Shown here: one piece after another, positions 965 to 57,299 of the stretch
How positions within the stretch are numbered: position 1 is the stretch's first letter
Layout of the letters: every line of letters starts with the position of its first letter
Assembly (NCBI RefSeq): GCF_000340215.1
Contig: NW_006921536.1
Location: 4,405,664-4,469,663, forward strand
Reading direction: 5' to 3'
Origin: Pseudocercospora fijiensis CIRAD86
Taxonomy: Eukaryota; Ascomycota; Dothideomycetes; Mycosphaerellales; Mycosphaerellaceae
Length of the DNA: 64,000 bases
Notes under the pieces: generated by a model
Seen by the model: only the letters and a program-made list of their open reading frames with translations
Databases searched by the model: none
Told to the model about the DNA's origin: nothing
Program-made: the position numbers and the translations under genes

Positions 965-1033
965 CTAGAGAAAAAGAGTTAGAACTATACTAGGTTGCCG
1001 GCTATAGGTGCCGGCTACGGACAAAAGTTATAC
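965..1033 (-). repeat. Transposase intron with TAGCCGGC motifs
   Basis: The minus strand shows donor GTATAAC, two AGCCGGC units, a TTCTAAC branch-like site and acceptor TCTCTAG. It splits a region that otherwise reads as transposase. Copy B has the same intron near 25660-25730. Confidence 0.6.
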
Positions 1034-3405: not shown

Positions 3406-3463
3406 CTGTTAGTATCTGCCGGCTACGAACGCCGGCTATATATGCCGAGCATAGAATAATTAC
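3406..3463 (-). repeat. Transposase intron with TAGCCGGC motifs
   Basis: Donor GTAATT, a pair of TAGCCGGC units, a perfect fungal branch site (TACTAAC) and acceptor CAG. Copy B carries the same intron near 32990-33050. Confidence 0.65.
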
Positions 3464-3951
3464 CTGTACCCCTTCCTCCTATAGTAACACTTCTGCCGTC
3501 CCTAGATACCTAGCCCCGATCGCATTAATCGCAAGCTACTTTGCCTTTATAGACGCAAAGGCTTCGCTCTAATACTAATAAAGAAACTTCTACTCTATAT
3601 CGAGGATATAAAGACGACTAGTCTCGATTCTAATCCTTACTAGCTTTTTATAGTAGCTTTAACTATAATTTTCTAGATTAATAGGACTTATATCTTAGCC
3701 CTTTACTAGTATCTCGTCTCTTTAACTATGCTCGATCCACTCCTAGCGCTTATCGTCTATAGCGTTAGGCCCTAAGACTGTATCTGTTACTAGATCGACG
3801 TATAGTATCTCCTCGCTTTTTTCAGTTCCTTTATTCGTAGTATTAAGCTCTATCGCGGCATCCTAAACTCTAGTATTGTTATTCTCGGCTATCTAAACAT
3901 CTCCGTTACTATCGGTCGTATCGATAGAGGTAGCGACTATAGGTCTGAATG

Positions 3952-4038
3952 CTATTAGTTAACGTGTCAAAGAAAAATATGCCGGCTATAGCTGCCGGCT
4001 ATAGCTGCTAGCTACGGCCGCTAGCTAGATTAACTTAC
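3952..4038 (-). repeat. Transposase intron with TAGCCGGC motifs
   Basis: Donor GTAAGT at 4038, GCCGGC and GGCCG units separated by TATAGC/TAGCTA spacers, a TTAACTAATAG branch-acceptor block ending at 3952. Copy B shows it near 55880-55960. Confidence 0.65.
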
Positions 4039-4497
4039 GCTGCTAGAACTTTACGCTCGAAAACTAGCCGCAATTCTTTCCTCCTCTTAGCCTTCTCTTA
4101 GGTTATCTTCTTATTCTAACCTTTACTTTTTTCTATAGGCGCTAGCTATCGATAGAATGCCTTATTCCGCGCCTTTCTTCTCTTATCCTTAGCTCTTTTA
4201 TCCTTATCTATCTTGTCCTTTCTCTCGCGGTCTCGTACGGAATTCTTCTTCGTAGAGTACTCCTCTTTAGTCTTACGCTTTTTAGTTAGACGCTTAGGCA
4301 AAACAAACTCGCGGTCTTTAGTTCTATCTTCTGTTTAGCGCGCGGCGCGCTTCTCTCTTACTATTGTAAGGGAAAGGGGCGGGGGCGCAGCGTATAGTAG
4401 TTATTATCGGTATAGGTATAGAGGAAGAAGTTGAAAGTATAAGAATATCGCGAAGCCCTAATTGTTGCCGCCTACGTAACGTTATATAGGTAAGCTT

Positions 4498-4715
4498 TCG
4501 CAACTACGGCAACTACGCCCCGGCAATAGCAACTACGCCCTAGCAACGGCAACTACGCCCTAGCAACGGCAACTACGCCCTAGCAACGGTAATAAAGCGT
4601 AGTAAATACAACCTAGTAACTATTATAGCCGGCAATCGTAGCCGGCAGTCGAATAAGAGTGTCCTTGTAGCAAAACTACGCCCTAGCAACGGCAACTACG
4701 CCCTAGCAACGGTAA
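4498..4715. repeat. Subterminal tandem repeats of hAT copy A
   Basis: A unit of about 19 bp (GCAACGGCAACTACGCCCTA) is repeated several times at 4498-4590 and again at 4671-4715. The two blocks are separated by spacer containing TAGCCGGC. The same arrangement is found at 56426-56620 in copy B. Short repeats just inside the termini are typical transposase-binding sites of hAT elements; that role is inferred. Confidence 0.7.
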
Positions 4716-4948
4716 AAGAGCGTAGTAAATATAATAGAGTTACTATTATAGCCGGCAATCGTAGCCGGCAGTCGAATAAGAGTATCCTTGTAGTAAAACC
4801 AATACAGTCTCTAGTTCAAACTAGGAATCTATATAGTTCGAAAAAACTAAACCGGAACTAGGGAGCTAGTTCGCCGCTAAGAAACCAAACTATATACGTT
4901 TAGTAGTTCGGAAACCGAACCACTGCGGGGTCTAGACTCTACTACTCG

Positions 4949-19880: not shown

Positions 19881-20329
19881 GATATAGCGGAATTAGTAGA
19901 TATCGGCCTAGTATAATTAACTTAGTATAATAGGCCGTATAGAAGGCCTTGCTTAATAATTAGTACGGTTGTTTTAGTAGAGTAGTACGTATAGGTCCCG
20001 TACTTTAGGCGTAACCGTAGTGGTTCGGGTTGGTTTAGTTTAGTTTGCTAAGCCGAAGATCTAGTTTGGTTTAGGTTGGTTTGCTAAGCAACTATAGGAT
20101 TGGCTAGTTCGAACTATAGAATTTGTCGGTTTCTAAGAAGTGTAAGAATAGCTACGTAACTCGAAGCAAGCCCTTTATAAGATACGAGAGTGTAGCCGGT
20201 AGCGTAGCCGGCATTTTTTAGTTGTAGGAAGGTACTTATATAACCCTAAATCTATAGACAATTAGCTAAGGGCACTAACTAATTAAAAGTATATATATAT
20301 ATACAAGCTATTATAGTTCAGTTTAGAAA

Positions 20330-20890
20330 CTATACTTATTAGGTATAAATTTTATCCTTTCGCTCGCTATTCAATTCCCTAACTGCTTAGTAGAATATTA
20401 TTATCTAGATCTAGGTAGAACTTATCGATTTCCCTCGAAGCTCTCCTTAAGAAGTTCTAGCACTTTCCTACTAAACTATACTCTAATATTAAGTACTAGG
20501 ATAGCTCCTCCCTCGATATCGGTATAGTATACGAAACAGCTATAAGGCAGCTCTATAGGGCGTTCTACTAGTTACTCGCTATACTATAGCCGAATGCTAG
20601 TTCGTTCCTTAAAACTCTAGGTTATTTAGTAGATATTAAGGATAGGGCAGGTAGTAACTTAGTATTATATAAGGAAGTAGAGGCTACTATAGAGGAGTCC
20701 TTTAACCTATAGAAGATAGTAAAAGATATAGAGGCAGCTATAGGTCTAGGTACCTAGTTGAATTTCTAGTAGGTAGAGTATAAAGATATTTAGAGGGAGT
20801 ATTAGGTAGAGTTGCGAAAGCAGGTATATAATATAGTCTAGAGAATAGGGATAATGCCTATAACTATAAGTATTAGGTTCTTTAATCTTC
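20330..20890 (+). pseudogene. Unrecognised decayed ORF in hAT copy B
   Basis: A plus-strand frame with scattered TAG codons reads as protein between stops, for example LGYLVDIKDRAGSNLVLYKE and KDIEAAIGLGT. It lies near the left end of the element, convergent with the H3-like gene to its right. TAGCCGG motifs occur on both sides (20195-20215, 20985-21005) and none inside. I do not recognise the family and no function is proposed. Confidence 0.4.
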
Positions 20891-21232
20891 CTCCTTTTTT
20901 CCTTATTTTCTTTTTATAAAAATCCAAACTAATACAAATTAACTAGAATGTCTATCTTCTTTTAGTTCTTTATAAGACCTAGCAGCGTAGCCGGTAGCGT
21001 AGCCGGCCTTTTTACTCCTTAGAACTAACGGGATTTTCGAAGACTTCTATTCCGTACGGCTAATAAAGTATACTATACTATATATATATACTTAGAGAGT
21101 ATTTAGAGCGCGGTATATAGCGCCGTATAATAGCGGCTTATTTCGTATATAGAAAAGCTTATAGACGATACTACGAACATCCTTCCTATTAGTATATCTA
21201 TCCTATCTAGTACTATCTCGAATATAGACATT

Positions 21233-21905
21233 CTAGCCTTTTAGAATCTAATCGAGTGCTTTGAAATCCTTGTCTATAATCGTTATACGCTTCGCGTAGA
21301 TAGCTATAAGGTTAACCGCTAAAATAGTATTAGTATAGTCCGAAAAGAGGTAGAAGAGAAACATATATTCGAAGATACGAACTAGGTAGGCTTCTATAGC
21401 CTCTTAAAGGGCGCCTATTACAGAGGCTTAGAAGCGAAGGTCCGTTCTATAATCCTAGGTAATTTCGCGAATAAGTCGTTAGAAAGGAGCTTTGCGGATT
21501 AAGAGCTTAGAACTCTTCTAATACTGCCGAATCTTACGGAGGGCTACGGCTAAAGAAGGATTAGTAAAAAGATAGTAAGAATGCCGGCTACGCTACCGGC
21601 TACGCTACCGGCTACGCTACCGGCTATAAATAGGACTTACTTCCTAGGCGCTATCGACGCTTCGTACGATTGCTACTAGCAGTAGAAGCGCTAGTTGTCG
21701 TCTTACGTAGAGCCTTGCCCGCCGTTGTCTTACGCGGAGCCTTACTCGCGACGCCCTTTCTAGTACCGGAGCTAGCGGTAGTAGTAGTAGCCCTCTTACG
21801 TTAATATACTATACTCGTTCTATTATTTCCGGTCTTATTACGACCCGTAGAAGCAGCAGGTCCCTTCTTACTAGGCGTCGTAACTTAGTTAAGTAGACTC
21901 GCTAT
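21233..21905 (-). pseudogene. Histone H3-like gene (long-tailed H3), RIP-mutated, in a DNA transposon
   Basis: The minus strand reads a complete histone H3 fold over three exons. Exon 1 (21905-21641) starts at ATA, an expected ATG changed by RIP, and encodes a Ser/Thr/Lys-rich tail with ASKAPRKTTAGKALRKTT, clearly related to the H3 tail around K14-K27. Intron 1 (21640-21550) has a GTAAGT donor and TTTAG acceptor, and splits the Gly-Thr-Val codons of PGTVALR just as needed. Exon 2 has VALRKIRQY, KLLIRKAPF, RLIREIT, DYRTDLRF, VIGAL and EAIEAYLVRIFEY. Intron 2 ends at TACTAAT...TTTTAG (21319), donor unclear. Exon 3 has NLIAIYAKRITII and DKDFKALD. Total is about 178 residues against 135 for H3; about 44 extra residues precede PGT. 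Stops fall where Gln or Trp is expected. In the H3 family with high confidence; its role in the element is unknown. Confidence 0.8.
21550..21640 (-). repeat. Intron of the H3-like gene carrying TAGCCGG tandem units
   Basis: The intron holds four units of TAGCCGG(T/C)AGCG between a GTAAGT donor and a CTTTTTACTAATCC...TTTAG branch-acceptor. The motif is shared with the transposase introns, tying this gene to the same element. Confidence 0.7.
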
Positions 21906-22114
21906 TATAAAAGTCGTCGAATTGAGGAAAAAAGTACGTTACGAAGGTATACGAAGGCGCGCGCGGAGCGAGGGTATTACGGAGGTAGTAGATATAGAGC
22001 GTAGAGGTATAGGTATCGATACGAAGGTTAAATATAGCGAGAGAGATAGTGTCGCGGTATCGCTAGGCAATAGAGTAAGCTTCGCGTAAGCCTATATTAT
22101 AGTAACGTTAGAGT

Positions 22115-22180
22115 AAGGAAAGAAGGCAGGTACGGCTAAAAAAGGTAGGTACGGCTAAAAAAGGCAGGTACGGCAGACTT
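22115..22180. repeat. 19-bp tandem repeat upstream of the H3-like gene
   Basis: GGCAGGTACGGCTAAAAAA is repeated about three times. It lies 210-275 bp 5' of the presumed start codon, where promoter elements would be expected. A regulatory role is only a guess. Confidence 0.7.
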
Positions 22181-22449
22181 TAAAATATAGCCGGCATATA
22201 TAGCCGGTATAGTAATAGGCGAAAGCCTCCTTTTAATAAATAGCCGGCGTAATAATAGTATCCTACTATAGTATAGATATTCTTTAGTAATGCCTTTACT
22301 AGCTATAGTAATCTTATAAGTAACCTAGGCCTATTGCTAGTAAATATAAGAAATATTAGGTAGGCTATACTAAACAAGCTAGTTATTTAGTAGGAAAAGG
22401 CCTACTACCGTCTCTATATACTGGCTACGAGTGCCGGCTATCGCTCTAA

Positions 22450-23175
22450 ATTCAACTCCGCCCTATCTCGGAGGCTAAGGTACCGAGCGGAAACCCTATA
22501 GCTTATATTTACTCGGTTATCGCGGAGCGCTTATAGGTAAGGTATTAGAAAAGAGTATAAAAAGTACGAGAAGAGTATCCTAGGATATAGGTCGTAAGTA
22601 AATAAGAGTAGTACGCCTAGTTATTTATATAGTACGTTACTCTATACGACTAAGAGCCTATATTATCTTATACTTCGCTTATAAGACCTCGACTCTACTA
22701 GTATACTATCGATCTCCTCCTCGGTCGCTAATACGCTATCTTAATTCTTCTTCGAGTTGCCGGACTTAGTACGTATCTATAGCTATATAATAGCGCTACG
22801 TATTATAGAGAATTTCTCGTTAAAGTTTCTCTCTCGTAGGCTTGCTATCTGCCTCGTAGTATAGAGGATTAAAGTACTAATACTAAAGAATCTCCTTATA
22901 GTTAGGATACTAGGGCTCCTTAGGACCTTTATATTTTCGGTCTAAATAGAGACGTATTATAAACGTTCTATCGCCCTTTCGTAGGCTTGCTATCTACCTC
23001 GTAGTATAGAGGATTAAAGTACTAATACTAAAGAATCTCCTTATAGTTAGGATACTAGGGCTCCTTAGGACCTTTGTATTTTAGGTCTAAATAGAGACGT
23101 ATTATAAACGTTCTATCGCCCTTTCGCTTACTACCCGCTAGGTCGTAATATACGAAGAAACTAATCTAAATATAG
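22450..23175 (-). pseudogene. Unrecognised decayed ORF with internal 145-bp duplication
   Basis: The minus strand reads LDLKYKGPKEP, YPNYKEIL, YFNPLYYE and DSKPTREK, then VRQLEEELR and further charged, helical-looking sequence. The family is not recognised. It lies between the two H3-like genes. A 145-bp direct duplication (22835-22979 and 22980-23124) breaks the frame, as 145 is not a multiple of three. TAGCCGG motifs lie on both sides (22190-22250, 22430 and 23268-23290). Confidence 0.4.
22835..23124. repeat. Tandem duplication of 145 bp
   Basis: The two units are nearly identical; the differences I see are mostly CA/TA or TG/TA changes. The duplication probably arose before or during RIP and is specific to this ORF. 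Confidence 0.9.
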
Positions 23176-23348
23176 CTCGTCTCTATAATAGCCGGGTAAA
23201 TATAGAGCGCTAGGTTTCTACTTCGTACCTTAGATTTAGGGACGGCGCGGAGATAAAATCAGAAATATAGCCGGCACCTATAGCCGGCAAAAGGATGCAA
23301 AAATAGGCCTCCTCCTAGGTTAATCTAACGACTAAATACAATTTCTAA

Positions 23349-24130
23349 CTAATCCGCTATAAACCGACGCCGAATTTTAGCTAGAAGCTATATATCTTTA
23401 TTTTAAAGAGTAACCCGCTTCGTATAGATAGTAAGGAGGTTTAAAAGCTTAAGCTCGGTTACGAGAAATGCCTCCGTAGCTTCCTAAAGAGCACTAATCG
23501 CCTTAGCCGTAAATCGTATACTAGACCGAAAATCTAATATAATTTCTCGGACGAGTCGCTAGAAGAGAGTCTTAGGGATTAAAAGCTCGGTCCCTCTTTT
23601 GTTTTAGAAAAGCCGGATCTAGCGAAGGGTAATAGTACCTAGTTTAAAGCGCTGCTTCTTTATCGTCGAGTCCTATCTTATTCCCTTTTTTTTAATAGAA
23701 AGATAACTTTTCTTCGCGATAGTCTTCGTCCGCCTACTCTTTTTAGCCTTCTCCTATCTACCTAAAGCCTTCTTATTTTTCGGTACTATTTTCCGAAGAA
23801 CCCCCTTCCTTCGTATATACTACGGAGAGTCTTGCTCTTCCGATATCTCGTTCTCGCTACGGTCTCCCTATACTTAGCTTACTTTACCCTTACCCTTTAG
23901 CCTCTAAAGATATTTATCTACGCGTTTAGGCGACGAGGGTATATCGGTAGGACCTAGAAAATTAATAAGTATATAATCGTAAAGAGATATTAATACTTCT
24001 TACCTTCTAGAACAAATAGTCTTCTATTAAACCGCCTTAGTAGGTTATCGTTAGATTCGTATAAAGGATAGTAGCTTAAGGAAGGGGAGGTAGCCGGCTT
24101 AGGAAGGCCCGAAGAGCCGAATCCTTAAGG
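23349..24130 (-). pseudogene. Divergent histone H3-family gene with long basic N-terminal extension
   Basis: The minus strand reads a histone fold at 23350-23660: KLGTITLR, IRLFQNKRGTELLIPK (the Gln is TAG here), RLVREIILDF, IRFTAKAISAL, EATEAFLVTEFKLLNL and TKRVTLQNKDI, then LLAKIRR. Each piece lines up with H3, with two extra residues in the QKSTELL region. The frame continues upstream without length breaks through a Lys/Arg-rich tail (SRRTKTIAKKSYLSIKKKG) and an extension containing IPSSPKRVDKYL and RLKGKGKVS. A 50-bp intron with GTAAGA donor and TTTTCTAG acceptor sits at 23954-24003. Further upstream the frame reads SYYPLYESNDNLLRRFNRRL. RIP stops are frequent. A CENP-A-like or other H3 variant is possible; loop 1 has no CENP-A-type insertion that I can see. 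The start is not defined. Confidence 0.75.
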
Positions 24131-24329
24131 TGTATTTATCTTTAAGAATATAGGGAAAGGGAAGAAGGAGAGGAAGAGCGAATAGAGAATTAGAAATAGT
24201 CTATAGGTAAGCGGGGTCGGTTACTATAGCAACTAGTCTATTCAGGTCCTAGGAATTCGAAACACATTTCGGATATATACCGGCTATATACGCCGGCTAT
24301 ATTACCTTATATGTAAACGCTTCGTCTCC

Positions 24330-26134
24330 TTAAAGCTACTCTAAGCCTATATACGTTTCCGCTTCTCGACCCGGTATCGCCTTTTATTTCCGCCCTCCTC
24401 CTCTTTATTATCGCTAATTAGGGTTTCGCTTAGACTAAATTTCGTGTTCTCTTCGCGCTCCTAGGTTTCTTCGATCTTAAGGTTTTCTAATTCCTCGATT
24501 AACTCCTTTAGTATAATCTTTAGTAACCTACCTTAGCGACTCTAGTAGAGGAGATAGTATCGGAATACTATAATAGATTCGAAGGTAGTAGGCGATTATA
24601 TTCGATTAAAGCGGCCCTAGTAACGAGCGATACTAAAAGACCTCTTATAGCCTATACCTACGCTCGGGATAGCGAGGACGTCCCGAGCGACCGACGCTAT
24701 CGTTAGAAACTTAGGCTCTAACCGCTACTATATAGCGAGAATATCGTCTCCGAATTCGTCTAGAAGACCGATAAGATCTAGAGATTATTAGCCCTCTTTC
24801 CGAGCCTACGGGTTTATACTTACTCGCGCGCCGATAGAGATCGAACTCTTCTTTATTCCCTTTAGTAGTTACTTCCTCTTTTGCCTCTACTTCCTACCTA
24901 CGAAATAGGTATAATATTAGAGCCCTCTAAACCTTCTTTTTCTTTATAGGAGCTATATCTAGACTAGTTTCTTTCCGACGCTCGTAGAATATCTTTTCTA
25001 GAACAGTCTAGTAATGCTTTAGCTATACCTCGTCCGCCTTCTATTCCGGCCTCTACTAGTATATATCCTTTTCTACCGGGTTAAGTAAGCACGCAACGCT
25101 ATAGATATCCCCGAACGACTTAAAGGTAGTACTATAATATTTATACAACTTAGTATAGGAGCTGTCTATAGCTTTCGTTATAGCTACTTTCTAGGGAACG
25201 CTCTTCTTAGCTAGCTTAGCTACGGTTTCCTTAAGCTCGTTAAAGAGCTAGTTATAGTACGTAAAGATAAGGTAGATCGTCGGTCCTCGGGTTCTTCTAA
25301 TCGTAGTAGTAACCTTCGCGTAATGCTTACTAATATCGACGAGATACTCTACTTAGCGCTATTCGGCGGCGGTAAGGCCGAGCTACTTAATACCTTCGGA
25401 ACTCTAACAGATCTCGAGAGCAGTATATAAAGTATATCCCCTCGTAACTATATAGAAAGTCGAATCGAACTAGGTCTTAATATCTTAGGTAAAACGGAGT
25501 AGGCGCTAAGGGGCCGCTTTTACTATCGCTTATTCTATACGATATTTTAGGCATCGGTTTTAAGGCGCTCTATTAGGTTCTTTTAAATAGCCTCGAATCG
25601 GTTATATCTCTATAAGCTCGAGTTCGTATATATTGCTAGACGACGAAGCTAGAGAAAAAGAGTTAGAACTATACTAGGTTGCCGGCTATAGGTACCGGCT
25701 ACGGATAAAAGTTATACCTTATATAAAACGAGAGCGAGGCTCTCTGCCTTATCCTATCTTATTACTATAACGAGTTTCTCGACTTTCGACTTTACCTTAT
25801 CCTTATCTAGGATCTTCTATTAGTCGTCGTTTAATAGTGCAATTTTAAGCGTCTTAAAGAGGGCTCGGATCGCGATTTGAACTATATAAGCGAGGTAGGG
25901 AAACTTCTATAGGGATATAACTAGCAACGACGTCGGCTCCGATTTAATAAGGCTAGGGCTATTACTAGGCTCCTCTTTATCGTTATCGTCGTACGTATTA
26001 TCGTGCGTATTCGGAATCGTAGCGAGCTTAATATTCGGAAGATTAAGCTAGATTCTAGACCTTATAATCTCCTCTACGTACTCGACCCTATCGATATAAT
26101 TAGTAATTTTAAAGACATATATAAGTGAATTGTA
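24330..26134 (-). pseudogene. hAT transposase copy B, C-terminal segment
   Basis: Contains the hATC dimerisation domain: PTIASVARDVLAIPSVG (24620-24700) and SFSIARY, then an acidic and basic tail (KELIEELENLKIEE, NKEEEGGNKRRY). The segment repeats copy A base for base apart from RIP-type changes. It is interrupted at 26146 by LINE1 and continues at 31069. The intron matching 965-1033 of copy A is near 25660-25730. Confidence 0.75.
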
Positions 26135-26146
26135 TATATAACGCCT
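26135..26146. repeat. Target-site duplication of LINE1, left copy
   Basis: TATATAACGCCT is repeated at 31057-31068. The uninterrupted copy A (1451-1462) has one equivalent of this site, reading TATACAACGCCT. Confidence 0.9.
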
Positions 26147-26229
26147 AATACGGACGTCTAGTAGCAGAATAGTCCCGTAAAACGAGGAAAATAGCAGCGA
26201 ACAATCAGAGACGAAGGGAAGACAGTTAA

Positions 26230-29200
26230 GAAGGAAGGGAGGACGAATAGAAAGTACTATATACTAGGGCAGAGGAGGTGCTAAAGGCGGAAGATAGAAG
26301 AACCCCTAAGAGGGTATATAGGATAATAATCTTAGAACTCCTTAGAGGACTAAAAGCAATCTACAACTAGGCAAGCTACGTAATTATAAAGGTAGCTAAT
26401 ATAGTCGTAGTAAAGATTACGAAGAAACAATAGGAGACAAGCCTAAACTACCGCACCTAGGTAGCAGTAGCTAGTTAGGAGGCGCTAAAACCCCCGAGGA
26501 CAGTAGTTAGAGTCTATATTACGGACCTATAGGAGCAAAAGGAAATCTAAGGACTTATAGGGAAAGAGATTGTAGAAAGAATTATAGTTAAAGAGGTAAT
26601 TAGGGCTAGGAACGAAGGGAAAGGGGTAATTAAGCTATTTACAGTATAAGAATAGGACAAAAAGAAGCTAGAAACACAAAAAGAATAGACAACTAAGATA
26701 GGGAAAACAGCAAAGGTCTCCTAATAGCAGTTTATAATTATAGCCTATAGTATAATAAGAAGCTTTAAGGAAGAACGGGATATCGAGAGCCTATAGAGAC
26801 AAAACTAAGCTATATACCTAGGCCTAAAGATTACAAAAGTAGTATAGATTAAAAGGAAAATCGAAGAGACTAAGAAGCAGTCTTCCCTAATCATCTAGGT
26901 AGGGAGTATAGAGCAAGCTAATATAGTACTAGACTAGGGGTTATTCTAGGACTTTAAAAGATTAGAAACAGAGATATATAGAAGCAACTATAGGATAATG
27001 CAGTGCTTCAAATATTAACACTATAGACACTTAGCAGCTAAGTACATAAAGACGACTAACACTTGCTCCTATTGTATAGGGGATTACTAGGTTAAAGAAT
27101 GCAAAGTATATAAGGGAGAAGCAAGATGTATATACTATACTAAAAGACACCCCTCTTAGGCGAAGGAATGCCCGGTAAGAATATAGGTAGCTAGGAAGGC
27201 AAAGGAAGCTAGAATCAACACACTAAAAAGATATATAATAAGCTAGGGCAGCTAGGTATAGAAGCAACCTAGCTAAGTGCTATAAAAGAGGTCTAGGCAA
27301 GATAATAGGTTTATATTTAGGGCCTTACTAGCATAAGAGAGTCACTAGCAACTAGGGAGACTAAGATACCTTAACATTGCAGGAAAGGAAGCAGGGCAGA
27401 CAAAGCTTAGTCAAATATTAGTCTAAAGTAAGGGAAGACTAAAGGAAAACTTATAGGGAAATAATATAGATAAAACCTAATAAACATTGCAACATTACTA
27501 AACATTATATAGTACAATGTTAACAAGAGCAAAGACAAGGTATAGAGGAGCTTCCTTTAAGCACTAAACCTAAAAGAACATTACATTATTGCAATCTAAG
27601 AGCCCTAGCTTAACCTATATATAAAGAGACTAGCAACAGTTAAAGACCTAAGATACTACCTAATTATCTATAACTAGGGAGCCCTAAGGATATATATCTA
27701 TATTAGTAAGGAGATAGATATAGGAACCTAGCAGGCTATACTATAGGAGGATAGGGACCTAACATTAGTTCAAGTAGAGACATCCTAAGGTACACTCTAA
27801 GTCTACTATATATACAACCTACTACTAGACTTAAGAAGCAGTATCTAACTAAAAACCCTAGAAAGACTACCTAGAGTTATCTAGGGGAACACCTACTAAA
27901 TCCTACTTAGGGATTTCAACCTCTACTACCCCCTCTAGGGCTTAGACTTTACCCTAGCTTACTACTTCCTAGTAGGAAGACTAATTAATATATTAGAGAG
28001 GGAAGGAATAGAAATTGTTACCCTAAAGGGACTAATTACTTAGGAGGCAAGAGGAAGCAGTAGTATACTAGACCTATGCTTTATATTATATTAGATTAGG
28101 GATAGGATTACAAGATATAGGGTTAACTAGGAACTAGAAGAATTATTAGACCACTTCCCGGTATAGATTGAGCTAAATGTTTAAGCCAATTAGGAAAGGG
28201 AACTAGAGGAGAAGCTCAATTAGAAAGGTGCTAAATAGGGTAGGATTAGGGAGGAACTAGAAAGGGACCTAAAACTAGAGGAACTCTTAACAAAGCACCT
28301 ACTAAGGCTAGAGGATATTAACAAGGCAGTAGAAGAACTAATAGGAATCCTAAAATAGGTAGCTAGAAAGCATACCCTAGCAAAGAAACATTTACTATAC
28401 TAGCAACTATACTAGACTAGTAAGTGTATAAGGAAGGTTAAAGTAGCAAGGAAGGCTAGGAGGCAGTAGATACAAACCTATATCTAGGAAGCATAGGATA
28501 ACTATAATAAAGCCTACTAGGAAAAGAAGATCCAGATTAAGAAAGATAAGATACAAGAATAGAGATCTATAATAGGAATAATTACAAAGAAACTAGAGGA
28601 GATATAGAGGATAGCTAAATAGGCAAGGAGGCCTAAATAGGAAAAGAATATACTACTACAATTCTTAGATATTATAGACTAATAAGGATAAATGCAGACT
28701 ACAATAGAAGGGAAAGCAAGAGCCCTAGGCTAATACTTCTTCTATAGAAAAGTATAAGCAGACCTATTAGATATAAAGGAGGAAGAACAAGAGACCCTAC
28801 TGCTAGGCATACTAAGAGATACCTAGGTTAAACCCGAAACTATTAAGAGGATCCTAAAGAAAATTCTAGGCAATAAGGCACTAGGAGAAGACAAGATCTA
28901 CAACAAACTTCTAAAAGCATATAGGAAGGGGCTAGCCCTAGCACTAGCCAATATCTTTTTATAAAGCCTAGCACTAGGACACTACCTAAGACTATTTAGG
29001 AAGTCCCTAATAGTAGTACTAAGGAAGCCCTAGAAGGAAGACTATATATAGCTTAAGGCCTATAGACTAATAGCCCTACTTAATATAATAGGCAAGGTGC
29101 TAGAGAAAATTGTCGCTAAAAGGCTAATAACCTTTACCGAGGAAAGGAATATCCTTCCTAAAGGCTAGATAGGAGGAAGAAAGAAGAGGTTAACACTAAC

Positions 29201-30900
29201 AGCTATAGAACTAATTATAGAACAGATTAAGCATATCTAGCACTATAGTTAAAACTAGGTAGCAACCCTCCTCTCCCTTAACATCTTAGGAGCCTTTAAC
29301 AATATCTCCTATAAAAGACTCCTATATATACTTAAATAGAAAGCTATACTAAACTAGATAGTCTAATTTATCTAGTCCTTCCTATAGGAAAGATCGATAT
29401 AGCTCATTCTAGGCAAATTTAAATTAGACCTAATACTAACTAAAAAGGGAATCCCCTAAGGATTAACACTCTCCCTAATCCTCTTTCTTATCTTTATAGT
29501 AGACCTACTCCTACTCCTAGAATTAAAAAACACATTAGCATTAGGGTTTGTAGATAACACAAACATCCTAGCCTAGTCTAAGACAATAGAAACCAACTAC
29601 AAGATCCTAGAAGAGAAGTACTAGGAGTATAAAAAATAGGCAAAGAGGTATAGAGCAAAATTCGCCCTAGAAAAGTACTAGCTTATCCACTTTAGCAAGG
29701 CTAAATCAACCTATAATATAAAGCAATCAATTACTATCTAAGGCTTTGAAACCCAACTATTAGCAGAGCTTAGGGTACTAGGGATCTAGCTAGATCTAAA
29801 ACTGAATTAGGGACTATAAGTAAAGAAGGTAAAGCAGAGGGCAGATGCTAATATGCAATCTATTAATAGACTTATAGCCTCTATATAGGGGGCTATATTC
29901 GAGAAAGCTAAAGTTATATATAAAGCAATTGTTAAGCTAGCAATGCTATATAGAGCACAGATATAGACAGCCTAGGAGAAAACACTAAAGAGGATTAAGC
30001 AACTAGTTAGTAGGTCCTAAACCTAAAGCCTAAAGAAAATCCTAGGAGCATATAAAACTATACTAACAAGGGTAGTAGAAATGGAATTAGGGATCCTACT
30101 AGTTAAACAATACTTTAAGGGACTAAGACACTAATATACGGTAAAGATAATAGAATACCTAGTCTAATAGACTATCTAAAAGGCACTAGACAAGATAAAA
30201 GCCTAGTATATTAGGACTAGGAGGCGAGACAGACTACAAATAACTCCCTAGAAAGTTAAAGACCTAGAGCAATATAGAGTCTTAACAAGAGAAATGCTAG
30301 AGAAAAAGCTTTAGGGACTAAACATAAGGCCGAAGGAAGATAAGCTAAAGGGAGAGAAACAAAGCCTAGTAGAGTTAATTGCTAGATACCTATAGGAGTA
30401 GGAATAGAACAAAACATAGGTTAGACTAGGAACCCTAAAGGCACTAATTAAATTTAGTTAATATAACTACTAGCTCTATAAGGACCTAAATAGGGCCGAG
30501 GCAAGCCTAGCTATCTAAATCAGATCTGAACACATTAGACTTAGGTCTTACCTATTTAGAAGAAACGTCCTAGGAATTGAAAGCAGAGCGTACCAATATA
30601 GCTACTAATCTTAGAACCCTAAGTATATACTACTAGTCTGCCCTTAGTAGTTAGAAGGCAGAAGTAATTAGAGACTAAAAGCAATAGAAAGGGAATACGA
30701 CAAGCTAATCCAGAGTAAAGAAGACCTAAAGAGGATAGTAAAGTGGATTATTAAATAGGGATTTATACAACAATTCGCACTAGTAAGGGAAACTAAGGAG
30801 TAGATAAGAAGGAGGGAAGAAGAGGGGGAAAGAAGGGCAGGGTAGTAGGCAAGGTAGTTGGAGGGTAACAACTATAATACTAGTACACCCTAGAGGAAGG
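26230..30900 (+). pseudogene. LINE1 ORF1/ORF2, decayed
   Basis: Zinc knuckles at 27003-27175 (RHLAAKYIKTTNTCSYC, KECKVYKGEARC, AKECPV). Endonuclease at about 27490-28190 with GNTY-ILLRDFNLYYPLWG near 27890-27950, the Asn-bearing catalytic block; LDHFPV near 28148 fits its final His motif. Reverse transcriptase at about 28850-29640, with NKALGEDKIYNKLLKA near 28870-28920, GAFNNISYKRLLY near 29290-29330, GIP-GLTLS near 29450 and FVDNTNIL near 29548 (FVDD with Asp to Asn). C-terminal YLFRRNVLGIESRAYQY...YILLVCP near 30550-30650 is the Tad1-type zinc region. No RNase H was recognised. Stops are RIP-type. Confidence 0.8.
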
Positions 30901-31040
30901 AAAACAAGGAAACGAGGAAGACCAATACTTATAAATAGGACAGGAGGGAGGTTTTTACTAACTAAGTTGGTTTCCTACCCAAAACAATACATAGAAACAG
31001 ACCTACATAGGCCGAAAGGCACTACAACAGGCAAATGAAA

Positions 31041-31056
31041 TATCTATCTATCTATC
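31041..31056 (+). repeat. LINE1 3' tail (TATC)4
   Basis: Tetranucleotide tail in place of poly(A). LINE2 has (TATC)2 at 40601-40608, so the tail length varies between insertions. Confidence 0.85.
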
Positions 31057-31068
31057 TATATAACGCCT
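31057..31068. repeat. Target-site duplication of LINE1, right copy
   Basis: Identical to 26135-26146. hAT transposase sequence resumes here exactly as in copy A. Confidence 0.9.
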
Positions 31069-33453
31069 TATATAATGTTCGATTATTACTAGCGTTGTCC
31101 GTAGTAATCGAGATTAGTTTCGTTATTACGCTAACCCTATCTGTTACCGTATAGACAAGCTTCGCTATATCCTTACTAGTATAGGAACCTAGAATTTTAG
31201 GGAATCCGATTATAAGTTCCTAGAGTTTCTAATCCGAATTAATAAAGTATAGTATAATCGAGAGGAAGGAGGCTCTTATAGTCCGGCTTAACTAGCTATC
31301 GATAGTAATAGCTACTCGGCGAGTATTACGGAGGATCTCCCGAATATCGTCTAACGTAGCCTCTTTATTCTTTTCGAATATAATACGCTAGGTTGTCGCG
31401 CCGAGAAATAGGGGAGGGTAGTTTATAAGATATAGGTATATCTTCTATATAGACTCCCTTTCGTAGAAGTCTTCCGAAAGACCGTTTATAGCTAGCATTT
31501 CGTTTGCTAGTTGCTTAAAGTCTTCGGGGGAGAAATAGTAGCCTTTAATCCTAGAGCTTCCTTAAGCGTAGCCTATAATAATTAGCTAGATCTCTACGGT
31601 TAATTAAAGTAGCCGGAATCTATAGCCGGCATTTTAGAAGACGTACCTCTTTCTAGAACGCTATATCTATATTAACTCTCCTCTCTCCTTAAGATTCCCG
31701 ATACCGTTTAGAATAGAGATATTTCGTAGGCGATAAGTTCCTATCCCCTAGTTTCGGGTATTTTAAGATTGAACCGTAGAAGTTATAGACAATTACTAGT
31801 TAACCTTTAAGTCGAGAAGTCGTATAACGGTACAATACCCCCTCTATAAAGAACTTCTAGAATATATCCGTTCGCTCCTTACTCCCCTATCGCATCGAGT
31901 ACTTCCGGAGTTTATACTCCTTCGAACGTAAGTATAAAGGGAACTATATCTTATAGACCTATTAATTAAACTGCTCTATATACTCGGGTTTCTAAAGATA
32001 CGCCTAGCTAGCCTTTTCGAAGATTTCCGGGTTAATACTCGATATTCTTATATCTCCGAACAACCTTCTACTTAGACTCCGTAAAGGTAAGGACTAGGTA
32101 GTAGTACCCTATAATAAATTCCTACTACTAGGATTCGGAGAGGATAAATCTAGCCCTAATCGTCGTCTAGGACTCGATAGGCTCGAAGGTAAGTATATAA
32201 CCTCCTCTTAACGTTGTCGCAATCTCGCTCGTATACTAGACTATTTCGACTGTCGTCTCGTTATTACCCTTCCTAGTATAGCGCCTAGTATATATATAAT
32301 GTCGGTCGGTATGTTTTAAGGTTTCGTACGGTAAGGTAAGGACTTAGGAGTAGTAGATATATACTAGTAGCTATAGGGAAACACCCTTTCTTTTATAGTA
32401 TTGTATCGTTAGGAACAGCTAGGCAGTAAATAGCTAGCTACCTTTTTTTTCGTTTCCTAGCTACCTAACTACTAGATTTTTTTTCCTAGCTACCCTAGCT
32501 AGCCTAACTACTAGAATTTCTTTCCTAGCTACCCTAACTACCTAAATTTTGCCTTCTATACGGCGGCTCTCTCCTACTAACGGAACCGAGCTACTATACC
32601 TAACGAATCTAAGCTCGTTTTTAGTCTTAATCTATCCTCTTTCGGTATAAGACACTCGATAAGCAAATACTTAGGCCGAGTCTAACTGTAAAACCTAAGA
32701 CTAACTAATAGCTCTATTAACTAATCCTAATCCTCGAACTCCTTCCGCTTCTTAGTAAAGACTTTAAAGAGCGCTCGAGCTTCGTCGGGTACCTATAGAG
32801 TAGTCGAGATAAAGCCGTATCGCTAAAATAGGTAATCCTTCGGAGGCTTATATAGAGATTTAGAGAATTCTAACGCTAACCTATCCTACTAGGCGCTTAG
32901 ATTCCGGATATAAGCCCTCTCTACCTTAGTAAAGATTTTATATAGTAGTAGCACTCTACCCTTAAGAAACGCTTTCTATTTAACTATTAGTATCTGCCGG
33001 CTACGAACGCCGGCTATATATACCGAGTATAGAATAATTACCTATACCCCTTCCTCCTTTAGTAATACTTCTACCGTCTCTAGATACCTAGCCGCGATCG
33101 TATTAATCGCAAGCTACTTTGCCTTTATAGACGTAAAGGCTTCGCTCTAATACTAATAAAGAAACTTCTACTCTATATCGAGGATATAAAGACGACTAGT
33201 CTCGATTCTAATCCTTACTAGCTTTTTATAGTAGCTTTAACTATAATTTTCTAGATTGATAGGACTTATACCTTAGCCCTTTACTAGCATCTCGTCTCTT
33301 TAGCTATACTCGATCTACTCCTAGCGCTTATCGTCTATAGCGTTAGGCCCTAAGACTATACCTATTACTAGATCGACGTAGGGTATCTCCTCGCTTTTTT
33401 TAGTTCCTTTATTCTTAGTATTAAGCTCTGTCGCGGCATCCTAAACTCTAGTA
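31069..33453 (-). pseudogene. hAT transposase copy B, middle segment
   Basis: Matches 1463-3878 of copy A, including two introns with TAGCCGGC motifs (near 31573-31650 and 32990-33050). It stops at 33453, where Helitron B begins. The remaining N-terminal part is found at 55799-56270. Confidence 0.75.
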
Positions 33454-55798: not shown

Positions 55799-56270
55799 AT
55801 TATTGTTCTCGGCTATCTAAATATCTCCGTTACTATCGGTCGTATCGATAGAGGTAGCGGCTATAGGTCTAAATGCTATTAGTTAACGTCTTAAAGAAAA
55901 ATATACCGGCTATAGCTACCGGCTACGGCTACCGGCTACGGCCGCTAGCTAGATTAACTTACGCTACTAGAACTTTACGCTCGAAAACTAGCCGCAATTC
56001 TTTCCTCCTCTTAGCCTTCTCTTAGCTTGTCTTCTTATTCTAACCTTTACTTTTTTCTATAGGCGCTAGCTATCGATAGAATGCCTTATTCTACGCCTTT
56101 CTTCTCTTATCCTTAGCTCTTTTATCCTTATCTATCTTCTCCTTTCTCTCGCGGTCTCGTATGGAATTCTTTTTCGTAGAGTACTCCTTTTTAGTCTTAC
56201 GCTTTTTAGTTAGACGCTTAGGCAAAATAAACTCGCGGTCTTTAGTTCTATCTTCTATTTAGCGCGCGGC
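55799..56270 (-). pseudogene. hAT transposase copy B, N-terminal segment
   Basis: Matches about 3879-4340 of copy A. It holds the basic N-terminus (Lys/Arg-rich, near 55975-56260) and the intron with TAGCCGG units near 55880-55960. Confidence 0.7.
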
Positions 56271-56425
56271 GCGCTTCTCTCTTACTATTATAAGGAAAAG
56301 AGGTAGGGGCGTAGCGTATAGTAGTTATTGTCGGTATAGGTATAGAGGAAGAATTTAAAAGATATAAGAATATCGCGAAGCCCTAATTGTTGCCGCCTAT
56401 GTAACGTTATATAGGTAAGCTTTCG

Positions 56426-56625
56426 CAACTACGGTAACTACGCCCTAGCAACGGCAACTACGGCCTAGCAACGGCAACTACGCCCTAGCAACGGCAATAG
56501 AGCGTATTAAATATAACCTAGTAACTATTATAGCCGGTAGTCGTAGCCGGTAGTCGAATAAGAGTATCCTTGTAGTAAAACTACGCCCTAGCAACGGCAA
56601 CTACGCCCTAGCAACGGCAAAAGAG
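56426..56625. repeat. Subterminal tandem repeats of hAT copy B
   Basis: Same 19-bp unit as at 4498-4715 in copy A, again in two blocks (56426-56500 and 56579-56620). Confidence 0.7.
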
Positions 56626-57299
56626 CGTAGTAAATATAACATAGTTACTATTATAGCCGGCAATCGTAGCCGGCAGTCGAATAAGAGTGTCCTTATAGTA
56701 AAACTAATATAGTCTCTAGTTTAAACTAGGAATCTATATAGTTCGAAAAAACTAAACCGGAACTAGGGAGCTAGTTCGCCGCTAAGAAACCAAACTATAT
56801 ACGTTTAGTAGTTCGGAAACCGAACTACTGCGGGGTCTAAGTTAGCCTAACGCTAAGCGCTAAGCCCTACCTAAGGCACTAAGACCCTAGCTTTACTCGA
56901 GCTAGTTATATACTAATTACGTATAGCCTCTAATAGTCTATAGTTACTACGTAGTGCTTAAGGACAGGGTTACTAATAATAATATCGGATAGAAGGTTAT
57001 CTATATCTACTACGTAGGTAGTAAAGTCTAATAAGCGCTTATTGCCGAGGTCGTCTTTTAGAACTATAGGAATATAGTAGGCCCTATAGGTTAAGTGCCG
57101 AGCGTTATTAAACTAAGCAAGGATTAGTATATTAGTCCTATTTAGTTGTCGAAGGTCTAATTGTTTAGCTAGGCGATAGCTAATAAGGGTACTAACTAAG
57201 TTGCCTAGGTCTAGTATAATACTGCTTTTATAGTTAGTGCCCTAGGTGTCTTATATAAGGCAGGTGCGTATAATAGCTAGTATAATGTCGATAGTTTTA

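What the first reader, a model, noticed from the sequence alone, without database searches (positions are those of the whole stretch)
21233..21905. A histone H3 gene inside a fungal DNA transposon
The sequence shows an H3 tail block (ASKAPRKTTAGKALRKTT), the alpha-N/alpha-1 block (VALRKIRQY, KLLIRKAPF, RLIREIT) and the alpha-2/alpha-3 blocks (EAIEAYLVRIFEY, AIYAKRITI), with an intron that splits the PGT-V-A-L-R segment in frame. It lies between the hAT left end and the transposase, and its intron carries the same TAGCCGG units as the transposase introns. Its tail is about 44 residues longer than in H3. H3 K9 methylation drives silencing linked to RIP in fungi, so an element-borne H3 could act as a decoy or mark. 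That role is inference; I know of no described example.
Basis: partly seen in the sequence, partly recalled or inferred. Interest (0 to 1): 0.88.

Follow-up and report, generated by a model that had tools for sequence, protein, structure and literature searches.

The report
Two dead histone genes in a transposon
A jumping gene present in hundreds of copies in this fungal genome carries two different histone H3-like genes, both broken in every copy read here; what appears to be the same element was published in 2019, but the sequence suggests that these were likely long-standing, intron-bearing genes of the transposon rather than copies of the fungus's own histone message.

Summary
In detail: an H3-like gene lies on the minus strand at 21236-21905, inside a hAT element. 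'An H3 gene inside a fungal DNA transposon' holds, but it is not new. Dhillon et al. 2019 (PMC6710886) describe this kind of element in Pseudocercospora fijiensis (9.5-9.9 kb, 20-bp TIRs, 8-bp TSDs, 784 RIP-mutated H3-like copies in 471 elements); Manning et al. 2013 (PMC3538342) describe a hAT-borne H3 in Pyrenophora. The genome here fits P. fijiensis (inferred; unnamed).

What I add: the element carries two H3-like genes, H3-A (the finding) and H3-B (23352-24133). H3-A has two predicted introns; one is 48 nt, the length of the '16-amino-acid insertion' that the 2019 paper reads as a mutation. That weakens its conclusion that an intronless transcript was captured. Copies of three element subfamilies carry both genes, with exon indels only in multiples of three. 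In a small tree H3-B groups with long-tailed H3s of Drepanopeziza brunnea, and neither gene is sister to the host H3; the tests are weak, and tests for selection on the histones are not significant. A hATC-like block, not found in 2019, is visible. The K9 'decoy' idea has no support.

The parts
20015..26150 (-). Left part of the hAT element (gene orientation is minus); a left edge at 20015/20016 is shared by 18 of 20 fetched places
31057..33453 (-). Continuation of the same hAT element right of a nested insertion; five full copies run about 1.1 kb further to the right TIR, which the window copy lacks
26151..31056 (+). Nested insertion that splits the element; looks like a non-LTR (LINE-type) retrotransposon; label from reading the translation, not tested
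21641..21905 (-). H3-A exon 1 (long tail)
21550..21640 (-). H3-A predicted intron 1, GTAAGT...CTAAT...TTTAG, holds four TAGCCGG units; GTAAGT and TTAG in 22 of 22 copies
21367..21549 (-). H3-A exon 2 (alpha-N to alpha-2)
21319..21366 (-). H3-A predicted intron 2, 48 nt; 5' end GTATGT in 6 of 22 copies and a G-to-A variant of it in 16, TACTAATAC in the window copy, TTAG at the 3' end in 22 of 22
21236..21318 (-). H3-A exon 3 (alpha-3, read to ILKG)
24004..24133 (-). H3-B exon 1 (start of a long tail)
23954..24003 (-). H3-B predicted intron, GTAAGAAG...TTTTCTAG, 50 nt (5' end reads GTTAAG in the sub3 copy)
23352..23953 (-). H3-B exon 2, with the histone fold at 23361-23654
24551..24781 (-). hATC-like block of the transposase (LASVARDVLAIPSVGIGYKRSFSIAR-like)
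   Evidence: (E = 0.033, below the curated cut-off)
24795..25496 (-). Middle block of the transposase
31058..31534 (-). Transposase block with ITTDNASNN, labelled DUF659-like from recall; Pfam gave no such match
32568..33371 (-). Transposase N-terminal block
20341..20883 (+). Possible third cargo frame, no family

Best explanation
This is a 9.6-kb hAT DNA transposon that carries two histone H3-like genes beside its transposase, both now broken by RIP-type mutations in every copy read here, and the two histones were likely working, element-owned H3 variants predicted to enter nucleosomes on or around the element while it was active. Shown: TIRs, 8-bp TSDs, both H3-like genes in copies of three subfamilies, stop codons. 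Predicted: splicing of the introns, translation. Inferred: that source copies made the proteins, that these paired with host H4 and replaced host H3 on new element copies, and that this gave the element some gain, such as chromatin that is easier to transcribe or to cut. The element and its H3 cargo are already published; I put near 0.97 on 'same kind of element as in PMC6710886' and about 0.4 on the working-variant mechanism.
For: Element: 20-bp TIR TAGACCCCGTAGTGGTTCGG identical at both ends of the C3 copy and an 8-bp TSD (read by eye) in 5 of 5 copies whose two ends I had. Genome counts within 2 mismatches: hATC tag 348, H3-A tag 379, H3-B tag 347, reversed-pattern control 0. Of 87 exact hATC tags on contigs C1-C4, 77 have an exact H3-B tag, 68 an exact H3-A tag, 82 at least one. 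Both genes occur in L043 and L042, one copy each of two further subfamilies. Exon gaps between the copies compared are 3, 6, 12, 21 or 27 bases, intron gaps 1, 13 or 34. The spacer between the two genes is largely unalignable between sub1 and sub3, while both genes align. Transversion ratios for the two folds pooled lie below one in all three pairs (0.52-0.83), near those of the transposase (0.47-0.62). A and B each form a 100/100 clade; B joins two Drepanopeziza H3s at 96/93.
Against: The constraint test is not significant for the pooled folds (P 0.087-0.78); A's fold alone gives 0.41-0.88 (P 0.021 in one of three pairs), B's fold alone 0.60-2.26 (P 0.35-1), while the transposase control reaches P 0.02-0.04. 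A cruder first count over whole genes gave ratios of 0.88-1.30 for A and 1.69-2.40 for B between subfamilies, none significant, that is, no sign of constraint. The pooled tails show none (1.1-1.7). The H3-A introns differ less than its exons between sub1 and sub3 (1 of 150 against 54 of 501 transversions, P = 7e-6), which a simple coding-constraint story does not predict. The transposase blocks also hold one 1-base gap. The tree rests on 96 columns with 6 of 21 inner branches well supported; by path length the row nearest to B outside its clade is the host H3 (1.19, Drepanopeziza 1.20). A+B as one clade (p 0.32) and B with host H3 (p 0.097) are not rejected. The protein search with H3-A lists ordinary H3s at the top, no clear long-lived relative. 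There are no transcripts.
Confidence: 0.45

Rival explanations
1. Transduplication of a host H3 transcript: the element picked up an intronless copy of the fungus's own H3 message, which duplicated inside it and was amplified as a passenger without function (the reading of PMC6710886).
For: PMC6710886 reports two H3-like copies in each full-length element, exon-exon junctions without introns, and RIP of all copies but the original. H3-B indeed has no intron at the PGT site. A+B as one clade is not rejected (p 0.32) and B with host H3 is not rejected (p 0.097). Constraint on the folds is not significant.
Against: H3-A has a predicted intron 3 bases from the host's second intron, in the same phase (host CCA G|GT ACC; H3-A GGA A|CC), with GTAAGT and TTAG in 22 of 22 copies; its lengths of 91, 103, 69 and 103 nt in the four copies compared cannot all be read through in frame. 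The 48-nt stretch, the length of the reported 16-residue insertion, has splice signals. A with host H3 has p 0.043.
Confidence: 0.33
2. A decoy or mark: the element's H3 soaks up or misplaces H3K9 methylation and so weakens silencing and RIP.
For: The residues aligned with K14, K18, K23 and K27 are still lysines in H3-A of sub1.
Against: The K4-K9 block is not conserved, ARKS has become TRKG, and the tails show no constraint. The element was heavily RIPed: (CpA+TpG)/(ApC+GpT) 0.18 against 1.23 at the host H3 locus.
Confidence: 0.05
3. Centromere-type histones: H3-B is a CenH3 relative that once steered the element to centromeres.
For: Long tail and EAFLV as in the host CenH3 (L035); B with the CenH3 rows not rejected (p 0.168).
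Against: H3-B lacks the longer loop before the RW motif and has RF there; it groups with Drepanopeziza H3s at 96/93. Copies lie at many places on each of the contigs listed, though centromeres were not mapped.
Confidence: 0.05
4. Chance neighbour: the H3 segment is a separate repeat that happens to lie beside hAT sequences.
For: None found.
Against: A shared element edge in 18 of 20 fetched places and TIR plus TSD around both genes in 5 of 5; 82 of 87 transposase tags have an H3 tag beside them.
Confidence: 0.01

Closest known systems
H3-carrying hAT family of Pseudocercospora fijiensis (Dhillon et al. 2019, PMC6710886)
   Same: Element length (9.5-9.9 kb; here 9.6), 20-bp TIR, 8-bp TSD, two H3-like stretches per full element, a 16-residue length difference between them, heavy RIP, one intact H3 on scaffold/contig 6.
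   Different: The paper reads the 16 residues as an insertion mutation, sees no introns, infers capture of a transcript, and did not find the hAT dimerisation domain. Here the 16 residues look like a 48-nt intron, H3-A has two predicted introns and H3-B one, the two genes look like separate lineages (weakly), and a hATC-like block is visible.
H3L-carrying hAT of Pyrenophora tritici-repentis (Manning et al. 2013, PMC3538342)
   Same: hAT transposase, an H3-like gene and a further frame of unknown function between TIRs; amplified.
   Different: 5.6 kb, one H3L, mostly intact and with ESTs; according to PMC6710886 its sequence shows no similarity to the Mycosphaerellaceae elements. I did not compare sequences.
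Long-tailed H3 proteins of Drepanopeziza brunnea (P0001, P0009, P0240 and others)
   Same: Join H3-B in the tree of 24 folds (96/93), long tails, several diverged paralogues on different contigs.
   Different: Annotated as genes, in another fungal class (class from recall); longer tails (the histone match starts at residue 261 of 383 in P0001); whether they sit in transposons was not testable here.
Canonical fungal histone H3
   Same: Fold, and lysines aligned with K14, K18, K23 and K27 in H3-A.
   Different: 40 extra N-terminal residues in H3-A, a tail of about 143 residues in H3-B, N-terminal MARTKQTARKS not conserved, C-terminal helix diverged.

Membership tests
hAT superfamily | Terminal inverted repeats | tested here: met
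   20 bp, identical at both ends of the C3 copy; similar by eye in the other 4 copies with both ends
hAT superfamily | 8-bp target-site duplication | tested here: met
   5 of 5 copies, read by eye
hAT superfamily | Transposase with hATC domain | tested here: inconclusive
   PF05699 E = 0.033, 14.4 bits against a cut-off of 21.4 on the RIPed window copy; motif clear by eye
H3-carrying hAT of P. fijiensis (PMC6710886) | 9.5-9.9 kb with two H3-like stretches | tested here: met
   9.56-9.62 kb in 5 of 5 (the outer TAGACC included); H3-A and H3-B in the window, C3, L043 and L042 copies
H3-carrying hAT of P. fijiensis (PMC6710886) | 16-residue length difference between the two stretches | tested here: met
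   48-nt stretch 21319-21366 in H3-A; reread here as an intron
H3-carrying hAT of P. fijiensis (PMC6710886) | Same sequence as the published consensus | not tested
H3-carrying hAT of P. fijiensis (PMC6710886) | Species is P. fijiensis | tested here: inconclusive
Histone H3 | H3 histone fold | tested here: met
   PF00125 E = 4.3e-31 (A) and 7.7e-22 (B), stops read as Q
Histone H3 | MARTKQTARKS N-terminus | tested here: not met
   so these are H3-like, not canonical H3
CenH3 | Longer loop before the RW motif | tested here: not met
   4-residue gap in both genes against the host CenH3
Retrocopy of the host H3 | No introns | tested here: not met
   H3-A intron 1 at almost the host position; predicted, no RNA

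The most novel reading that the evidence does not exclude
This hAT lineage owns a pair of old, intron-bearing H3 variants that are not copies of its present host's H3 transcript; H3-B belongs to a wider fungal family of long-tailed, mobile H3s that also reaches Drepanopeziza, so transposon-encoded histones are a standing kind of element gene that remodels chromatin for the element, not accidental passengers.
Probability: 0.3. Interest if true: 0.75.

Novelty: already known. Interest (0 to 1): 0.4.

Why it matters
A transposon that makes its own nucleosome parts would have a direct way to shape the chromatin it lives in. The 2019 paper treats the H3 as a captured housekeeping transcript. If the intron evidence here holds, that origin story is wrong for at least one of the two genes, the '16-residue insertion' needs a new reading, and the question changes from 'how was H3 captured' to 'what does an element do with two H3 variants'. 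That is testable with RNA reads and with species in which such genes are open.

Tried and rejected
Chance neighbour: rejected. TAGCCGG as an element-specific link: rejected, the units are all over the window. CenH3 origin of H3-B: weakened, not excluded. Selection by transversions (RIP makes only transitions): the whole-gene count shows no constraint; the site-weighted count leans to constraint for the pooled folds but is not significant; the 'Acore' rows were in the wrong frame and are not used. Drepanopeziza paralogues as RIPed repeats: 909 of 1707 residue differences are transition-type; tails align poorly, so no conclusion. Third frame 20341-20883: no family (best E 0.009, below cut-off) and no coding signal. 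Literature: six searches; beyond PMC6710886 and PMC3538342 no title or abstract start listed was about transposon-borne H3; the other listed papers, PMC4994206 among them, were not opened. That the intron reading or the Drepanopeziza link is unpublished rests on these six searches only.

Full report
What is there. In the window its model is exon 1 21641-21905, intron 1 21550-21640, exon 2 21367-21549, intron 2 21319-21366, exon 3 21236-21318. The frame changes between exon 1 and exon 2, so intron 1 is required for an H3 protein. With stops read as Q the C3 copy's protein matches PF00125 at 4.3e-31 and solved H3 chains at 1.7e-41. With stops left as X it is identical to the genome's own H3 (L034) at 73 of 133 aligned positions.

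It is cargo. The window lies in an unnamed 73.9-Mb assembly. The search with the 673-base segment scored 40 of 454 candidates and lists 40 near-full matches, the window included, plus 21 short ones. Of 20 fetched places, 18 share a left edge at 20015/20016; L011 and L013 do not. Five copies for which I had both ends are 9.56-9.62 kb, end in TAGACC... inverted repeats and have 8-bp direct repeats outside (AGAGGTAG, ATATAATC, CTAATAAC, TATATATA, GTAGTTCG, read by eye). In the window a LINE-type insertion (26151-31056) splits the element, the right end is missing after 33453, and the outermost bases of the left end are not intact. Tags within two mismatches occur 348 times (hATC), 379 times (H3-A) and 347 times (H3-B); the reversed-pattern controls give 0. 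Only the first 100 places of each are listed. Of the 87 exact hATC tags on contigs C1-C4, 77 have an exact H3-B tag within 0.5-3 kb and 68 an exact H3-A tag within 2-6 kb on the same strand, 82 at least one; only exact tags were used, so these are lower bounds.

A second H3. The search of the genome for PF00125 had 772 candidates, 150 scored. Two have no stops: the intact H3 (C6, L034) and the intact CenH3 (C5, L035). The other 148 have stops; the six I fetched (L036-L041) and those that fall in fetched elements are another H3-like gene, H3-B. In the window it is exon 1 24004-24133, intron 23954-24003, exon 2 23352-23953. It has a tail of about 143 residues, no intron at the PGT site, and its fold matches PF00125 at 7.7e-22.

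It is published. Dhillon et al. 2019 (PMC6710886; I read abstract, background, results, discussion and methods, no supplements) report in P. fijiensis 784 H3-like copies in 471 hAT repeats, a full length of 9.5-9.9 kb, a 20-bp TIR, an 8-bp TSD, one or two H3-like stretches per element, RIP of all but the original, and the same in five more species. Manning et al. 2013 (PMC3538342; passages) report a 5.6-kb hAT with an H3L that has ESTs in Pyrenophora and already ask whether it alters chromatin. So the central claim of the finding is known. That this genome is P. fijiensis is my inference.

Where the evidence departs from the paper. The paper says that the second H3-like stretch differs by an insertion of 16 residues, presumably a mutation, and that the absence of introns suggests capture of a transcript. 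In H3-A, removing exactly 48 nt (16 codons) gives an ungapped match to H3 around FE-NL-AI-AKR. This stretch begins GTATGT in 6 of 22 copies; the other 16 read ATATGT (10), ATATAT (5) or GTATAT (1), all explained by G-to-A changes after T, as RIP makes them. It ends TTAG in 22 of 22 and holds TACTAATAC in the window copy. Intron 1 begins GTAAGT and ends TTAG in 22 of 22. It is 91 nt in the window, 103 in C3, 69 in sub2 and 103 in sub3, and lies 3 bases from, and in the same phase as, the host's second intron. These are predictions without RNA. The paper also did not find the dimerisation domain; the block at 24551-24781 reads like one, though Pfam scores it below its cut-off.

Are they genes of the element? 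L043 and L042, one copy each of two further subfamilies (84-88% and 77-82% identical over the main aligned blocks), carry both H3-A and H3-B. Exon gaps between the copies compared are all multiples of three (3, 6, 12, 21, 27), intron gaps are not (1, 13, 34); the transposase blocks have gaps of 3 and 6 and one of 1. The spacer between the genes is largely unalignable between sub1 and sub3, while the genes align; replacement of the spacer could also do this. Since RIP makes only transitions, I counted transversions. A first count over whole genes (codon positions 1+2 against fourfold sites) gave ratios of 0.88-1.30 for A and 1.69-2.40 for B between subfamilies, none significant. A site-weighted count gave a nonsynonymous to synonymous ratio of 0.47-0.62 for the transposase (P 0.02-0.04), 0.52-0.83 for the two histone folds pooled (P 0.087-0.78), 0.41-0.88 for A's fold (P 0.021-0.75), 0.60-2.26 for B's fold (P 0.35-1) and 1.1-1.7 for the tails (P 0.17-1). 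So constraint on the histones is suggested by indels, not shown by substitutions. Against a simple story, the H3-A introns carry fewer transversions than its exons between sub1 and sub3 (1 of 150 against 54 of 501).

Relatives. The protein search with H3-A gave 185 hits, the best 120 listed, with ordinary H3s on top. The search with H3-B gave 1178, the best being a 383-residue H3 of Drepanopeziza brunnea (E 1.8e-25). In a tree of 24 folds over 96 columns, with stops as missing data, A is a clade (100/100), B is a clade (100/100), and B joins two D. brunnea H3s (96/93); 6 of 21 inner branches are well supported, and by path length the host H3 (1.19) is as near to B as D. brunnea (1.20). One candidate row, Cudoniella P0081, was dropped because the script did not find its fold start. 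Topology tests: A with host H3 p 0.043, A+B with host H3 p 0.044, B with host H3 p 0.097, B with CenH3 rows p 0.168, A+B with the D. brunnea rows p 0.226, A with B p 0.32. So separate origins are favoured, not shown. Their surroundings could not be read.

How it likely worked. Dead now where read: 9-11 stops in each of 22 H3-A copies, stops in all ten H3-B copies read, RIP index 0.18 over 20015-26150 against 1.23 at the host H3 locus. Before that, source copies likely expressed transposase and two H3 variants; from the fold they would pair with H4. That they replaced host H3 on the element, and what the element gained, is inference. The K9 decoy idea has little behind it: the K4-K9 block is not kept and the tails show no constraint.

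Verdict. A correct and sharp observation of a published thing. The new part is a correction: introns in H3-A, two H3-like genes that look like separate lineages, and a possible wider family.

Noticed in passing
window 21319-21366 and 21550-21640: The H3-A introns are more conserved between element subfamilies than the exons (1 of 150 against 54 of 501 transversions, sub1 against sub3). Unexplained; homogenised or functional introns are possible.
   Followed up: partly
window 998-1017, 2005-2050, 3419-4768, 55906-56673 and others: Pairs and short runs of TAGCCGG units 12-13 bases apart occur all over the window, in and outside this element (58 against 17 expected).
   Followed up: no
window 26151-31056 and from about 35740: Two copies of a LINE-type element; the first is less depleted of CpA/TpG (0.54) than the hAT (0.15-0.18), so perhaps younger or less RIPed.
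   Followed up: no
window 22831-23120: A 145-bp tandem duplication, 97% identical, in the spacer between H3-A and H3-B.
   Followed up: no
L035 (G000:C5:606000-607000): Intact host CenH3 gene with an intron after FSRL.
   Followed up: partly
window 20341-20883, plus strand: A frame free of TGA with 13 TAG/TAA codons, opposite in direction to the other genes; may be a third cargo gene like the central frame of the Pyrenophora element.
   Followed up: partly
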